Assembly (NCBI RefSeq): GCF_900129455.1
Contig: NZ_FQVU01000001.1
Coordinates: 62,001-126,000, forward strand
Length of the DNA: 64,000 bases
Reading direction: 5' to 3'
Source of the DNA: Jatrophihabitans endophyticus
GTDB taxonomy: Bacteria > Actinomycetota > Actinomycetes > Mycobacteriales > Jatrophihabitantaceae
The notes beneath the pieces are model-generated. The model saw only the letters and a program-made list of their open reading frames with translations. It was not told where the DNA came from and did not search any database. Below, in pieces: positions 44,924 through 55,454 of this stretch (positions are counted from its first letter, which is position 1; each line of letters starts with the position of its first letter). Position numbers and translations under genes: made by a program.

Positions 44924-47900
44924 GTGAAGCTGTCACCCGGCCGGAGGACGAGGGTGCGCGTCGCGCTGCCCTTGGCCGTGGCCCTGAGCGTGTCGGTGCT
45001 GTCACCGATCGCGAACGCGACCCCCACGACCACCGCTCCCGCGGCGAGCCCGGCGGCCGCCGAGGCCACCACGCTGCCCGACCCGACGGCGCGCGGCACC
45101 GAGACGATCAAAACGATCCAGGAGGTCAAGCTCGGGCTGGCCGACCTGCAGGAGCCGAACTCGTCGGGCGCCGCGCCGGGGACGGGGCAGGCACAGTCGG
45201 CCGAACGATTCGAGATCCGTGGCGCGCTCTACTACCCGGCCGAGCGCAGCGAGCCCTCGCCGCTGATCGTGCTCGTCCACGGCAACCACGGCTCGTGCGA
45301 CGCCGGGCAGGACTCGACCACCGCGACGTGCACGTCCTTCAAGCGCAACGAGGCCGGCTACGCCTACCTCGGCGAGAACCTCGCGACGTGGGGCTACACC
45401 GTCTTCTCCCTGTCGCAGGACCAGCTGATGATGCGCCAGGACAACAGCAAGGGGAAGGGCATGCACCAGCGGCGCATGCTGATCGCCAAGGCCCTCGACG
45501 CGCTGTCGGCCGCGAACAAGCCCGGCGGCCTGACCGACGACGCGCACACCACCATCGGCGACACGCTCGCAGGCAGGCTCGACCTGACCCGCATCGGACT
45601 GATGGGGCACTCCCGCGGCGGCGACGCCGTCACCAGTTTCATCGACTACAACCGCATCCGCACCGACGGGCCGCGCTATCCGATTCGTGGCGTCATCTCG
45701 CTGGCGCCGGTCGACTACGAGCGCAAGGCGCCCTACGGCATGCCGTACATGACGATCCTGCCGATGTGCGACGGCGACGTCTCCAACCTGCAGGGCGCCC
45801 GCTTCTTCGAGCGCAGCCAGTACGCGAACCCGAACGACCCCTTCCCGCGCATCCAGGTCGAGCAGCTGGGCGCGATCCACAACTGGTACAACACCGTCTG
45901 GTACGCCGACGGCAGCGCGGACGGCCAGAACAACAACGACGCGGCGTGCGGCAACTCCACCCCGTTCGCCGACACCAACGTGCATCCGCACAACCTGCGG
46001 CTGTCGGGCGCCGCGAGCTACACCGACCCGGCGAAGAACTACGCGGTGAACAACGGGGCCGACAACGCCGACACCTACGACCCGGCCGTCAACACCAAGA
46101 TCTCGGGCGACCCGGCGCGCATGGGCGACCAGGAGAAGCTCGGCCTGGCCACCATGGCGGCGTTCTTCCGACGCTACGTCGGCGGTGAGGGCGCCTTCGA
46201 GCCGTACCTGACCGGCGAGCTCTCCGACACCGACTCGCACCTGCAGGTGCCCGCGTCCGCGTGCCCGACGAGCGACTCCGGTACCCGGATCGCGTGCTCG
46301 GAACGGGTCAACACCACCTACGTGGCGGCGCCGAACGAGCGGGTGGACCTCATCCGACCCGAGGTCGAGAACCCGCTCACGCTCGACGCGCTCGGCGGCT
46401 CGCTCACCGGCTCCGGCTTCGCCGACCCGTACGCGCAGGCCGCCGGCGTCACGCCCACCCCGAAGGCGACCGCCACCGGCTACGACTGGTGCAACCCCGA
46501 ACCGGACGACTTCGCCCCGTCGCAGCTCGGCAAGAGCACGCTGCCGACCGCGGCGAAGGCCTGCCCGCTGCCCGCCGCGAGCGCGCTGGGCGGCCAGAAC
46601 GGCATCCGCGAGAACGGTCCGGTCAACCAGTCCTACGGCCGGCAGCTCACCATGGCGTGGGAGCAGTCGAGCCCGGCCAGCCTCACCGCACAGATCCCGG
46701 CGGCGTCGAAGGACGTCAGCGGGCTGAAGGCGCTGGCGCTGGACGCGGACGTCAACTTCTTCGACACCCGCAACCCCGGCGCCGACGACCGCGGTGACAG
46801 CACCAAGGTCGGGTCGGACTGGCCGAACGAGAAGCCGACGTCCTACGACCCGACGGCCACGACGCAGGACTTCCTGATCGACCTGACCGACACCGACGGC
46901 CACGTCGCGACGGTGCACGCGAAGGACCCGCGCTGGGGCAACGCCCTGCACATGTCCACCGGCACGAACACGCCGAACACGCACATCGTGCTCGACCAGA
47001 TCCGTGTGCCGCTCACCGAGTTCACGAAGCAGGGCGTCGACACCGCCTCGCTGGCCTCGCTGCGGTTGCGCTTCGGGGCGGCGGGGACGCCGGCGTCCGG
47101 TTCGATCCAGCTCGCCGACGTCCGCTTCCAGGAGGCGACGGCCGGCTCGGCCGTCTACTCCGACGGCGACGTGGCGGACGGCGCCGGCTCGGGCCTGCCC
47201 ACCTCGGGCCCCGACCCGGTCGCGGTGCTGAACGGCACCGACAACACCGCCGGGAACGTGAAGCTCGTGGACACGGTGGGCAACGCCAAGGGCAACAGCA
47301 CCTGGGTCGTCGACGACGACAAGCAGCAGTGCCCGAACGCGAACTTCGCCAAGATCCAGGACGCCGTCGACCACGCCGCGCCGTGGGACACGATCGTGGT
47401 CTGTGCCGGCGTCTACCAGGAGTCGTCGACACCGGTCTACAGCGCGAGCAACCCGGTCGCGACCGGTGCCACGAACGGCCTGACGATCACGAAGCCGCTC
47501 AAGATCAAGGGCGCGGGCGCCGACAAGGTGACGATCGAGCCGGACCAGTCGCTCGACACGCTGGCCGGGGTCACCCCCTACCTGCGCGACGGCGGCGGCA
47601 ACGTCATCACCGTGTCGCGACAGTCGCTCGGCTCGACGGACACCAACGAGATGTTCGTGGACATCTCCGGGGTCACCGTGACCTCAGGGAACACCTTCGC
47701 CGAGGCCGGCATCGCGTACTTCGGGACGGCCGGCCGCGTCTCGGAGAGCGTGGTCGGACCGATGAAGGCTGCGAGCACGACGGCCGAGCTGGCCGACAAC
47801 CCCCACGGCTGGGGCATCGTGCGCACCGGTCTCGTGCTCGGCTCCGGCCCGGGCACGGTCGAGAGCGAGCTGACCGTCGCGAACAGCCTCGTCACCGGGT

Positions 47901-49267
47901 ACCAGGCCGGTGGCATCCTGTTCGACGGCGGCCGCGGCAAGGACGGCAGTGCCGACAACACCGTGCGCACCGGCATCCGGGCCCACGGGTACGTGACCGG
48001 CACCGTGGTGAGAGGCAAGCCCAACTCGCTTTTTGCGCAGACGGGCGTGAAATACGCCAGCGGCTTCGACGGGTTCGTACGCGGCAGTCGGATCACGGGC
48101 AACTACTTCAAGGCCGATCCCTCGAAGTCGTACGGCATCCTGCTCGCCGACGCGGGGACGGACACCACCACCGGGCTCTCCGGTTCGGGTGACGTCGTCA
48201 CCGGCAACGGGTTCGCCGTCTACAACGCCAACGCCGACAACAGCGCCGTCCGACAGTCGGCCCCGTTCGCGCTGTCGGCCAGCTACGTCGGGACGGGCGC
48301 ACCGGTCGCCGGGGGGCCGGCCGACCCGGCCGCGGGGACCGAGGCGATCTCCGGCCCGGACACCACGCCGGCGGCGACCGTCACCACGCCGGGCCGGCTC
48401 TCCTCGGCTCCAGCCTCGGTGCCGACCGCGGCGGGGAGCGTGGTCGACGCCGCGCCGACGGCCGCGCTCGCGGACCCCGTGGGCACGGCGAAGGTCGAGG
48501 CGGGCGCGACGCTCACGGCGCTCGCCCGGGCGACGGACGACCACGCCGTGCAGTCGGCGACGCTGCTCGTCGACGGCACCCCGGTGGCCACGACGGGGAT
48601 CGCGCCCTACCGGCTCACCTGGAGACCGGGCGCGGGCCTCGCGGGCAGGGTCGTCGACCTGCAGGCGCTCGTCACCGATTCCGCCGGGCAGCAGACCACG
48701 TCGGCTGCCGTCCGTACGACGGTGCTCGGTTCGTTCACCACCGCCCCGACGCCCCGCATCACCGGCACCGTCGCCGCGGGCCGGACGGTTCGGATCGCGG
48801 TGGGCACGTGGTCGCCGAAGCCGACGGCCTACGCCTACCAGTGGGCGGCCGACGGCACGGCGATCAAGGGGGCGACCCGGAGCAGCTACGTCGTGGCGAG
48901 GTCGCTGACCGGTCACCGGTTGACGGTGCGGGTCACGGCCACGCGGCCGAACTACGTGACCGCGTCGCGGACGTCCCGCCCGGCCCGGGTGTCCGGCGTC
49001 TTCGTCACCGCACGCCCGCGGATCACAGGCACGGTCGCGACCGGGCGCACGGTGAAGGCCGCGGTCGGGTCGTGGTCGCCCCGGCCGAGCGCCTACGCCT
49101 ACCGGTGGTACGCCGACGGCAAGGCGATCAAGGGTGCGACCCACGCGCGGTACACGATCGCGACCCGGTTCGCGGGCCGGGCGCTGACCGTGAAGGTCAC
49201 CGGCACGCGGTCGGGATACCTCACCGCGCGCGCGGTGTCGGCGAAGCGTCGCGTGGCCGCGTCGTAG
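44924..49267 (+). CDS. Giant secreted protein: alpha/beta hydrolase fused to beta-helix and Ig-like modules
   Basis: 1447 residues. Signal peptide about 1-33 (VALPLAVALSVSVLSPIANA). An alpha/beta-hydrolase domain covers about 65-420: PLIVLVHGNHGSCDAG, IGLMGHSRGGDAVTSF with nucleophile Ser230, and a His in LGAIHNWYNTVWYADG. A beta-sandwich-like region follows (about 560-740). A right-handed parallel beta-helix covers about 800-1100, starting ANFAKIQDAVDHAAPWDTIV. An Ig-like domain (about 1185-1265) and two modules of about 85 residues (TPRITGTVAAGRTVRIAVGT, RPRITGTVATGRTVKAAVGS) end the protein. Substrate unknown; an ester-bearing polysaccharide would fit. Ribosome-binding site GAGGAC. Confidence 0.85.
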   Translation: MKLSPGRRTRVRVALPLAVALSVSVLSPIANATPTTTAPAASPAAAEATTLPDPTARGTETIKTIQEVKLGLADLQEPNSSGAAPGTGQAQSAERFEIRGALYYPAERSEPSPLIVLVHGNHGSCDAGQDSTTATCTSFKRNEAGYAYLGENLATWGYTVFSLSQDQLMMRQDNSKGKGMHQRRMLIAKALDALSAANKPGGLTDDAHTTIGDTLAGRLDLTRIGLMGHSRGGDAVTSFIDYNRIRTDGPRYPIRGVISLAPVDYERKAPYGMPYMTILPMCDGDVSNLQGARFFERSQYANPNDPFPRIQVEQLGAIHNWYNTVWYADGSADGQNNNDAACGNSTPFADTNVHPHNLRLSGAASYTDPAKNYAVNNGADNADTYDPAVNTKISGDPARMGDQEKLGLATMAAFFRRYVGGEGAFEPYLTGELSDTDSHLQVPASACPTSDSGTRIACSERVNTTYVAAPNERVDLIRPEVENPLTLDALGGSLTGSGFADPYAQAAGVTPTPKATATGYDWCNPEPDDFAPSQLGKSTLPTAAKACPLPAASALGGQNGIRENGPVNQSYGRQLTMAWEQSSPASLTAQIPAASKDVSGLKALALDADVNFFDTRNPGADDRGDSTKVGSDWPNEKPTSYDPTATTQDFLIDLTDTDGHVATVHAKDPRWGNALHMSTGTNTPNTHIVLDQIRVPLTEFTKQGVDTASLASLRLRFGAAGTPASGSIQLADVRFQEATAGSAVYSDGDVADGAGSGLPTSGPDPVAVLNGTDNTAGNVKLVDTVGNAKGNSTWVVDDDKQQCPNANFAKIQDAVDHAAPWDTIVVCAGVYQESSTPVYSASNPVATGATNGLTITKPLKIKGAGADKVTIEPDQSLDTLAGVTPYLRDGGGNVITVSRQSLGSTDTNEMFVDISGVTVTSGNTFAEAGIAYFGTAGRVSESVVGPMKAASTTAELADNPHGWGIVRTGLVLGSGPGTVESELTVANSLVTGYQAGGILFDGGRGKDGSADNTVRTGIRAHGYVTGTVVRGKPNSLFAQTGVKYASGFDGFVRGSRITGNYFKADPSKSYGILLADAGTDTTTGLSGSGDVVTGNGFAVYNANADNSAVRQSAPFALSASYVGTGAPVAGGPADPAAGTEAISGPDTTPAATVTTPGRLSSAPASVPTAAGSVVDAAPTAALADPVGTAKVEAGATLTALARATDDHAVQSATLLVDGTPVATTGIAPYRLTWRPGAGLAGRVVDLQALVTDSAGQQTTSAAVRTTVLGSFTTAPTPRITGTVAAGRTVRIAVGTWSPKPTAYAYQWAADGTAIKGATRSSYVVARSLTGHRLTVRVTATRPNYVTASRTSRPARVSGVFVTARPRITGTVATGRTVKAAVGSWSPRPSAYAYRWYADGKAIKGATHARYTIATRFAGRALTVKVTGTRSGYLTARAVSAKRRVAAS

Positions 49268-53094: not shown

Positions 53095-53592
53095 TCATTC
53101 GTTCGTGCCGCGGGTGATCCAGCCGCTCCATTCAGACCAGTTTGCGAGCACGTTGCAGCTGTGGACCGAGGCGTCGCAGGTGCCCACGCGGTAGGTAATG
53201 GAGATGCCTTCGGTGAAGTCCTTGTTGCACTGGTGTCCGCCCTGGGCCGGCGATGTGACCACGACCGGATCGAAGACCGCGTCCTTGCCCGCGGTGTTGA
53301 CGCACATACCCGATCGACCGTCGGATGTCTTCCACCGGACACCCACTCTGCGACCGTCGACCTTCGTGTCACCGGGCTCGATCTGGTCGCCACTCGGGCG
53401 GAAGCAGCCCACCGCAGTCTGGTTGCTGGGTGTCGTGCCGTTGGAGACACAGAAGTGCGAGCCTGTCGACCACGCCGAGGCGGTCGCGGTCTCGAAACCA
53501 TCAGCGGCCATGGCCGGTGACGCGGTCGCGATCGCCGCTGTGGCCAGCGACAGCAACGAGGCGAAGGAGAGGGTGTACCGACGCTTGGACAT
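53095..53592 (-). CDS. Small secreted six-cysteine protein (second paralogue)
   Basis: 165 residues from ATG 53592. Signal peptide about 1-31 (LSFASLLSLATAAIATASPAMA). The mature part of about 134 residues has six cysteines and shares CVNTAGKD, CNKDF, RVG-CDAS-H-C and LANWS-WS-WI with the gene directly upstream. I do not recognise the family. A compact, disulfide-bonded secreted protein rich in Trp and Gly is expected; enzyme active-site motifs are not evident. It starts one base after the stop of its paralogue, so translation is coupled. Lower GC than the neighbouring housekeeping genes. Confidence 0.8.
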   Translation of the reverse strand: MSKRRYTLSFASLLSLATAAIATASPAMAADGFETATASAWSTGSHFCVSNGTTPSNQTAVGCFRPSGDQIEPGDTKVDGRRVGVRWKTSDGRSGMCVNTAGKDAVFDPVVVTSPAQGGHQCNKDFTEGISITYRVGTCDASVHSCNVLANWSEWSGWITRGTNE

Positions 53593-53593
53593 G

Positions 53594-54070
53594 TCAGCTC
53601 GCGTTCTTCCGGGAGATCCAGTCAGACCATTGGCTCCAGTTCGCAAGGTTCGTGCAGTCATGCGCGGAAGCGTCGCAGCTCCCTACTCGGAAGGTGATGG
53701 TGGCTCCTTCGCCGAAGTCCTTGTTGCACAGGTGCTTGCCGCTGGGTTGTTGAGTAGGGGGCGTAAAGCTGAAGTCCTTGCCGGCGGTGTTGACACACAG
53801 ACCCTTCCGGCCGCCACTGGTGGACCACTGCATGCCAGTGCGCCGACCGTCGGCCTTGACATCACCCACCTGGAGATAGTCGCCCCGTACCTCCAAACAG
53901 CCATACGCGCTGTTCTGGGCGTTGTTCACGCACCAATAGGTTCCGTTGACCCAAGACTGGTAGGTGGCAATGTCGTACTCGCCGCTCGCGGCCGCAGCCG
54001 GGGATGCTGCGATCATCAGGCCCGCGACACTTGCAGCGCCGACTCCGAAGGCTGTGCCTATCCGTCGCAC
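53594..54070 (-). CDS. Small secreted six-cysteine protein (first paralogue)
   Basis: 158 residues. The GTG start at 54070 is fixed by a textbook AAAGGAGG eight bases upstream, suggesting high expression. Signal peptide about 1-27 (FGVGAASVAGLMIAASPAAA). The mature protein has YWCVNNAQNSAYGCLEVRGD, DGRRTGMQWSTSGGRKGLCV, HLCNKDFGEGATITFRVG, and CDASAHDCTNLANWSQWSDW; the six cysteines align with those of the next gene. No known family or catalytic motif is recognised. Probably a tandem duplication. An XRE regulator is encoded 119 bp upstream on the same strand. Confidence 0.82.
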   Translation of the reverse strand: MRRIGTAFGVGAASVAGLMIAASPAAAASGEYDIATYQSWVNGTYWCVNNAQNSAYGCLEVRGDYLQVGDVKADGRRTGMQWSTSGGRKGLCVNTAGKDFSFTPPTQQPSGKHLCNKDFGEGATITFRVGSCDASAHDCTNLANWSQWSDWISRKNAS

Positions 54071-54189
54071 GAGCTTCCTCCTTTGGTTCGTCCCGGATCC
54101 GGTTTCGTCCGAAGTGGTCAGCTAGACGTTCGCGCATCCGCGCGTCGGACAGGTCGTTGCGGCCCAGCTCTTGCCGCAAAACTTGCCGC

Positions 54190-55044
54190 TTACGACCACG
54201 TCCAGCTGATGCCGACCATCCCCGGGGCAGTGACATGCCGCGTGACCGACGCCGATCCGGTCGGATCGAGGGAGATCGGGCCTTCGACACGCAAGTCGGC
54301 GGGGTTGGCGCCCGCCGTCGTCCACAACCGTCGTGGTGCTGAGGGGTCGACGAACGTGACGGACACCGTTGCCAGGTGGGGCACGTCGCGCCACCCCATG
54401 GCGAAGTCCGGCTCCGACGCGGGGGGAAAGTCTGCGAGATGCCGAAACTCCCATCGCACACCCACTTCGTGCATGACCCCCGGACGCAGCACCGGATCGA
54501 GGGCCACGCGCAGCGCGAGGAGGTCGTGGCCCGGTATCCGCAGCAAGGCGGCGACCGTCCCGCCGATCGTGACGTCGGCGCTCACTGCGTCGAGGTCCAG
54601 GCTCGGATCGTCACCCCACAGCAGCCAGTGGTGCGCGACCGGATGGTCCCTGCCCTCGAGCAACAGCGAGTGGTCCAGGTAGTGGGATAGTCGGTCCGGA
54701 CCGATAGTCATGCGGGCGTTCGACGACACCACGCGTGTGGCGCTGTTGAGCGGGCGCTGTCCGGTACCGAGGTAGGCGTCGACGTCGAGCGAGCGGCCGA
54801 CGACGGGAGCCAGGCGAGACGTCGTGGGGTTCGGCGCCGCAGACGCGAGGAAGGTGGCGGTCTGTGCGGTCGTGAACCCGAACGCGCGCGCCAAACACGT
54901 CAACGAGTGGCGCTGCGGCCGGCTCGTCGCGCCGCGCTCGATCGACCGCAGCGTACGGAGCGAGATCCCCGCCGAGTCAGCCAACTGCTGTTGGGACATC
55001 CCGCGTGCGGTTCGTGCTACCCGCACCTGGTGACCGAGATCCAT
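54190..55044 (-). CDS. XRE family regulator with large C-terminal sensor-like domain
   Basis: 284 residues from ATG 55044. The N-terminal HTH is LGHQVRVARTARGMSQQQLA, DSAGISLRTLRSIERGATSR. The C-terminal region of about 190 residues looks beta-rich (VTIGGTVAALLRIPGHDLLA; VLRPGVMHEVGVRWEF; VSVTFVDPSAPRRLW) and resembles the ligand or signal domain seen in some actinobacterial XRE regulators, but I cannot name it. It is probably the regulator of the two secreted proteins downstream. Upstream in-frame residues to 55071 are possible but lack support. Confidence 0.78.
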   Translation of the reverse strand: MDLGHQVRVARTARGMSQQQLADSAGISLRTLRSIERGATSRPQRHSLTCLARAFGFTTAQTATFLASAAPNPTTSRLAPVVGRSLDVDAYLGTGQRPLNSATRVVSSNARMTIGPDRLSHYLDHSLLLEGRDHPVAHHWLLWGDDPSLDLDAVSADVTIGGTVAALLRIPGHDLLALRVALDPVLRPGVMHEVGVRWEFRHLADFPPASEPDFAMGWRDVPHLATVSVTFVDPSAPRRLWTTAGANPADLRVEGPISLDPTGSASVTRHVTAPGMVGISWTWS

Positions 55045-55454
55045 GACGGAGATAGTGCAGGTCGAAGGCACGTCCGTCGAAGTCGACAGCGGGGCCCAGG
55101 TAGCGGGAGTCTGGGCCGATTGACATAATGTGCATTATCGGCGCGATGTGCTGGATCACCAGCCGACCCCGCCGCGGGACGGCAGCTGCCCGAGCGGACC
55201 TGCCGTCCCGCGATCCATGCGATGACGTACGCGCCTCATCATCCTGCACGCCGCTCGTCGATGAACGTCGCTCGTATGACGAACGCGCCGCACGGGTTCG
55301 GGTCGGCGCCGACCACACCGTATGGGACGCGGCGGCATTGTCCGGCGCGACCGCTCCCGGCTCCAGGCGTCCGGCGTCCACGCGGATCGGATTGACATAA
55401 CGTCTTGCGCAGACGGTCTCGGCCGTCGCGGTGCCGACGGAGCACGGCGGTGGG
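55045..55454. promoter_or_regulatory. 410-bp gene-poor region upstream of the XRE gene
   Basis: Contains two copies of GATTGACATAA[T/C]GT, at about 55116-55129 and 55390-55403. The first overlaps the dyad ATAATG-TG-CATTAT (about 55123-55136), a likely XRE binding site. A small plus-strand reading frame (55128-55400) between the copies has no ribosome-binding site or recognisable product, so I do not call it. The rest shows no structure I can identify; it may hold remnants of a degraded gene. Confidence 0.45.

What the first reader, a model, noticed from the sequence alone, without database searches (positions are those of the whole stretch)
53095..55140. XRE regulator with two tandem six-cysteine secreted proteins: possible undescribed secreted-effector or signalling cassette
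Two paralogous small exported proteins, one base apart, share six aligned cysteines and blocks CVNTAGKD, CNKDF, CDAS and LANWS. The first has an unusually strong ribosome-binding site (AAAGGAGG). An XRE regulator with a large uncharacterised C-terminal domain lies 119 bp upstream on the same strand, and its own upstream region has an AT-rich dyad. I recognise no family for the secreted pair. Base composition is lower in GC than nearby genes, and remnants and deletions lie close by, so this is accessory DNA. The functional role (toxin, inhibitor, signal or wall protein) is pure inference.
Basis: partly seen in the sequence, partly recalled or inferred. Interest (0 to 1): 0.7.

Follow-up and report, generated by a model that had tools for sequence, protein, structure and literature searches.

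The report
Regulator beside paired exported cysteine-rich proteins
Two neighbouring genes make small exported proteins from a real but unnamed family that is scattered across soil bacteria; the regulator gene beside them is a local arrangement, not a conserved cassette, so the locus is fairly ordinary although the family's job is unknown.

Summary
S1 (158 aa) and S2 (165 aa) are tandem exported paralogues with six aligned cysteines, one base apart. An XRE gene lies 119 bp upstream, with an AT-rich dyad unique in the 4.48 Mb genome. The cassette reading does not hold. S1/S2 belong to a broad family of small exported proteins with no significant Pfam, NCBIfam, PHROG or PDB sequence match, found in 24 of 394 sampled genomes of the class and in the myxobacterium Archangium lansinium. 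Homologues elsewhere mostly stand alone and none has this XRE type beside it. The XRE C-terminal domain is itself widespread (36 of 247 genomes), on other N-termini, with no S1/S2 homologue within about 1.5 kb. Correlated cysteine loss supports disulfides C3-C4 (22 both, 0 single, 19 neither) and C1-C2 (21/1/11). AlphaFold2 predicts an Ig/fibronectin-III-like beta-sandwich (pLDDT 84.6); S1, S2 and the Archangium homologue carry a WSxWS box near the C-terminus. The locus fills a variable slot between conserved genes and is lower in GC. Best reading: exported, non-enzymatic binding domains with a local regulator. Function and regulation are inferred, not shown.

The parts
53594..54070 (-). S1: exported six-Cys protein, 158 aa, GTG start, strong RBS
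   Evidence: ORF; homologues; model
53095..53592 (-). S2: tandem paralogue of S1, 165 aa, ATG start (the 53661 start would overlap S1)
54190..55044 (-). XRE regulator: Cro/C1-type HTH plus a C-terminal domain shared with other actinomycete proteins
54071..54189 (-). 119-bp XRE-S1 gap with the S1 ribosome-binding site; no copy of the 55125 dyad; no sigma-70-like promoter or terminator found
55125..55138 (.). AT-rich dyad ATAATG-TG-CATTAT upstream of XRE, candidate autoregulatory operator, unique in the genome
51672..56636 (.). variable segment (ROK, S2, S1, XRE, VOC, AraC genes) between the conserved methionine-aminopeptidase-like and UvrA-like genes; replaced by other genes in relative G016

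Best explanation
S1 and S2 are a locally duplicated pair from a broad, unnamed family of small exported single-domain proteins. Shown: tandem paralogy, signal peptides, family relationship, co-varying cysteine pairs, accessory location. Predicted: an Ig/fibronectin-III-like beta-sandwich held by disulfides C1-C2, C3-C4 and C5-C6, with a WSxWS box before the last strand. Inferred: the two genes are co-transcribed; the XRE protein controls its own gene through the 55125 dyad and perhaps also S1-S2, with its C-terminal domain sensing a ligand; S1/S2 act outside the cell as non-enzymatic binding or surface proteins. The XRE gene is a local partner, not an obligatory part of a system.
For: Paralogy. 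Family members in the own genome, class genomes, Glycomyces, Phytomonospora, Streptomyces and Archangium. Cysteine co-loss: C3-C4 22 both / 0 single / 19 neither; C1-C2 21/1/11; mixed pairings show many singles. Model pLDDT 84.6, pTM 0.81; VIA-align best rows are mostly fibronectin-III domains, Z 7.4 to 6.2, model residues about 24-130. HTH genes sit upstream of exported-gene runs twice more: own genome C6 and G139. Variable spot and no match in 23 family relatives.
Against: Fold Z is below 8 and no Foldseek E is below 1e-3, so only a common sandwich arrangement is safe. The 55125 dyad is absent from the XRE-S1 gap, so control of S1-S2 by XRE has no sequence support beyond adjacency. C5-C6 co-loss is weak because of gaps. 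No ligand or activity is known.
Confidence: 0.5

Rival explanations
1. XRE and S1-S2 are unrelated neighbours brought together in a variable spot, with no regulatory link; S1/S2 are still exported family members.
For: The two families are unlinked in every other genome found to hold both; no shared operator; variable segment.
Against: Same strand and close; HTH genes precede runs of exported genes twice more.
Confidence: 0.35
2. S1/S2 are secreted inhibitors of extracellular enzymes, like the small disulfide-bonded inhibitors of streptomycetes.
For: Size, export and disulfides fit.
Against: No Pfam or NCBIfam inhibitor match; no conserved reactive loop evident; loops vary strongly.
Confidence: 0.12
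3. A dedicated XRE-controlled secreted antagonist or signalling cassette, with S1/S2 acting on other cells.
For: Same strand, 119 bp apart, strong RBS, accessory DNA; LuxR-type HTH plus runs of exported genes at two other loci.
Against: No XRE of this type beside homologues elsewhere and no homologues beside the XRE C-terminal domain elsewhere; no recognisable immunity gene; no match in the PADLOC library for S1/S2.
Confidence: 0.1

Closest known systems
Unnamed small exported protein family of actinomycetes (annotated 'hypothetical protein' on Streptomyces plasmids)
   Same: Core C..GC[FV]..xGD..xV.D...DG...v.W....R.G.C.N..G....CNKDF.EG; signal peptide; about 100-135 aa mature
   Different: Most members lack C5-C6, some lack all six cysteines; none has this XRE type beside it; mostly single copies
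Fibronectin type III / class I cytokine-receptor D2 domain
   Same: Predicted sandwich; WSxWS box between the last two strands, as recalled for receptor D2 domains
   Different: No Pfam fn3 match, Z below 8, three inferred disulfides, bacterial, exported as a single domain
XRE-DUF397 pairs of Streptomyces (PMC6262351, PMC10364602)
   Same: An XRE gene followed by small genes of unknown function (per their abstracts)
   Different: S1/S2 are exported and have no DUF397 match
PFNA operon FN3 protein of bifidobacteria (PMC8430577, PMC10688814)
   Same: Bacterial FN3-domain protein in papers that mention WSXWS (search hit)
   Different: A fn3 gene with several domains in a five-gene cluster; compared from the search listing only, papers not read

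Membership tests
S1/S2 small exported family (defined here) | Profile match over the mature domain (GD...D...DG...CNKDF.EG core) | tested here: met
S1/S2 small exported family (defined here) | N-terminal export signal | tested here: met
   read from sequences; no signal-peptide program was available
XRE plus tandem secreted pair as a conserved cassette | Pair accompanied by this XRE type in other genomes | tested here: not met
Fibronectin type III (fn3) | Sequence profile match | tested here: not met
   no Pfam family for S1/S2 at E up to 1; none for homologues
Fibronectin type III (fn3) | Fold | tested here: inconclusive
   Z 7.4 and below, no Foldseek E under 0.001
XRE-DUF397 pair | DUF397 domain in the small protein | tested here: not met
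XRE family regulator | Cro/C1-type HTH | tested here: met
   HTH_31 44 bits (cutoff 27), HTH_3 36.7 bits (cutoff 23)
Anti-phage defence system | Match of the exported proteins to known defence proteins | tested here: not met
   none for S1/S2 in PADLOC; XRE matches only around its HTH

The most novel reading that the evidence does not exclude
S1/S2 are bacterial, exported, cytokine-receptor-like fibronectin-III domains whose WSxWS box and flanking strands form a ligand-binding surface, with production switched by a ligand-sensing XRE protein: an extracellular binder-plus-sensor module not described in bacteria.
Probability: 0.06. Interest if true: 0.65.

Novelty: new member of a known kind. 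Interest (0 to 1): 0.3.

Why it matters
The family is real, crosses phyla (actinomycetes and a myxobacterium), has no curated model in the libraries searched and carries a testable disulfide pattern, so it deserves a family entry and one solved structure. The locus itself shows how lineage-specific exported proteins come to lie beside local regulators in variable spots.

Tried and rejected
Single-protein S1 scan of genome contigs and viral-contig scans with A5 and A6 found nothing; phage records none, plasmid records one weak hit. PHROGs and PDB sequence searches gave nothing significant. The viral structure library gave no E below 0.001. XRE C-terminal domain folded alone: pLDDT 38.9, not used. 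Shared operator between the XRE upstream region and the XRE-S1 gap: no shared word of 9 bases or more. Rfam: none. Promoter/terminator scan: none found, as expected by chance. Toxin-antitoxin reading rejected: no matching family and both small proteins are exported. Paper searches for a description of the family found none.

Full report
OBSERVATION. S1 is 53594-54070(-), 158 aa; S2 is 53095-53592(-), 165 aa; they are one base apart. All six cysteines align and the two are about 50% identical. The S1 ribosome-binding site AAAGGAGG is present. The XRE gene (54190-55044) ends 119 bp upstream. The dyad ATAATG-TG-CATTAT at 55125-55138 is the only AT-rich perfect 6-bp dyad in the window, and the pattern occurs nowhere else in the 4.48 Mb genome. 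It does not recur in the XRE-S1 gap.

FAMILY OF THE EXPORTED PAIR. S1 and S2 match nothing in Pfam or NCBIfam, and nothing significant in PHROGs or PDB sequences. The own genome has a third copy, S3, on contig C6. A profile of the three finds a tandem pair in a genome of another family (G162) and single copies in a genus that is probably Streptomyces. A scan of named genomes adds Glycomyces, Phytomonospora, Streptomyces and, across phyla, a lipoprotein-like homologue in Archangium lansinium. A 16-sequence profile finds members in 24 of 394 sampled genomes of the class; the loci held here contain 42 distinct matching sequences once a truncated duplicate is removed. No match was seen in 23 other genomes of the window's family with S1 as query, about half of which are incomplete. 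On Streptomyces plasmids the matching genes are annotated 'hypothetical protein'.

CYSTEINES. C3 and C4 are both present in 22 sequences, both absent in 19 and never single; C1 and C2 are 21 both, 11 neither, 1 single. Mixed pairings such as C1-C3 have eight discordant sequences. Relatedness inflates the p-values, but the contrast between pairings supports disulfides C1-C2 and C3-C4. C5-C6 is assigned by elimination.

FOLD. AlphaFold2 with ten sequences gives pLDDT 84.6 and pTM 0.81, nearly all beta. Foldseek finds no PDB match below 0.001. VIA-align's best rows are mostly fibronectin-III domains of cytokine receptors, Z 7.4 to 6.2 over model residues about 24-130; the tool warns that Z below 8 may mean only a common arrangement. 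S1 has WSQWS, S2 WSEWS and Archangium WSDWS (sequences). In S1 this is mature residues 117-121, between the strands at 96-105 and 124-127. In cytokine-receptor D2 domains the WSXWS box lies in the same place (own knowledge). Whether this is homology or convergence is open; other members have only forms such as SGW or SDWW there.

REGULATOR. The XRE protein has three full-length tandem paralogues in its own genome, with no exported-family gene beside them. A profile of the C-terminal domain hits 36 of 247 class genomes. In the 29 loci read, the N-terminus is not matched by this XRE HTH profile, and no exported-family member lies within the roughly 1.5 kb flanks held. Conversely no exported-family locus outside G000 has this XRE type in the flanks held, 1.5 to 6 kb. 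So the two families are independent.

OTHER HTH NEIGHBOURS. Three looser parallels exist: an operon on G000 C6 with a LuxR-type HTH, S3 and two further small exported ORFs with overlapping or close starts; a G139 locus with a weak GerE-like HTH before two tandem members; and a TetR-like gene about 0.2 kb upstream of the Glycomyces artemisiae copy (L080). XRE genes of other types lie 0.5 kb downstream of one Glycomyces luteolus copy (L085) and 2.6 kb from the G. dulcitolivorans copy (L079). HTH genes are common in these genomes, so single cases mean little.

CONTEXT. In the closed relative G016 the flanking methionine-aminopeptidase-like and UvrA-like genes are conserved in order at about 80% identity, while the roughly 5 kb between them is replaced by about 7 kb of other genes.

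MECHANISM. Shown: paralogy, export signals, family membership, cysteine co-variation, variable location. Predicted: sandwich fold. Inferred: co-transcription, XRE autoregulation at 55125, possible control of S1-S2, and a non-enzymatic binding role outside the cell. I give the combined reading 0.5, with mere adjacency of XRE and the pair the main rival for the regulatory part.

VERDICT. A correct observation of an unnamed but widespread protein family beside a local regulator. Not a new kind of cassette.

Noticed in passing
L005:6078-8177 (own genome C6): LuxR-type HTH gene overlapping by a few bases a small exported ORF, followed by S3 and a third small exported ORF with overlapping start: apparently an operon of a regulator and three small exported proteins.
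   Followed up: partly
L047:4834-7764 (own genome C5): Three tandem full-length paralogues of the XRE regulator, each about 290 aa, with no exported-family gene beside them.
   Followed up: partly
L078:5875-6426: Lipoprotein-like homologue with WSDWS in the myxobacterium Archangium lansinium, a cross-phylum member of the family.
   Followed up: partly
Streptomyces plasmid records, hits H3-H8: Family members lie within about 1 kb of the record ends on several plasmids of about 200 kb.
   Followed up: no
55118-55131 and 55390-55403: Direct repeat GATTGACATAAYGT upstream of the XRE gene, the first copy overlapping the dyad.
   Followed up: no
L049-L077: Widespread actinomycete proteins carrying the XRE C-terminal domain behind a different conserved N-terminus (FHxALRxAIxxRGLxLxRVQxHL); one of them (L051) has no Pfam family above cut-off.
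   Followed up: partly
44924-49267: Large 1447-aa ORF with an apparent export signal on the + strand.
   Followed up: no
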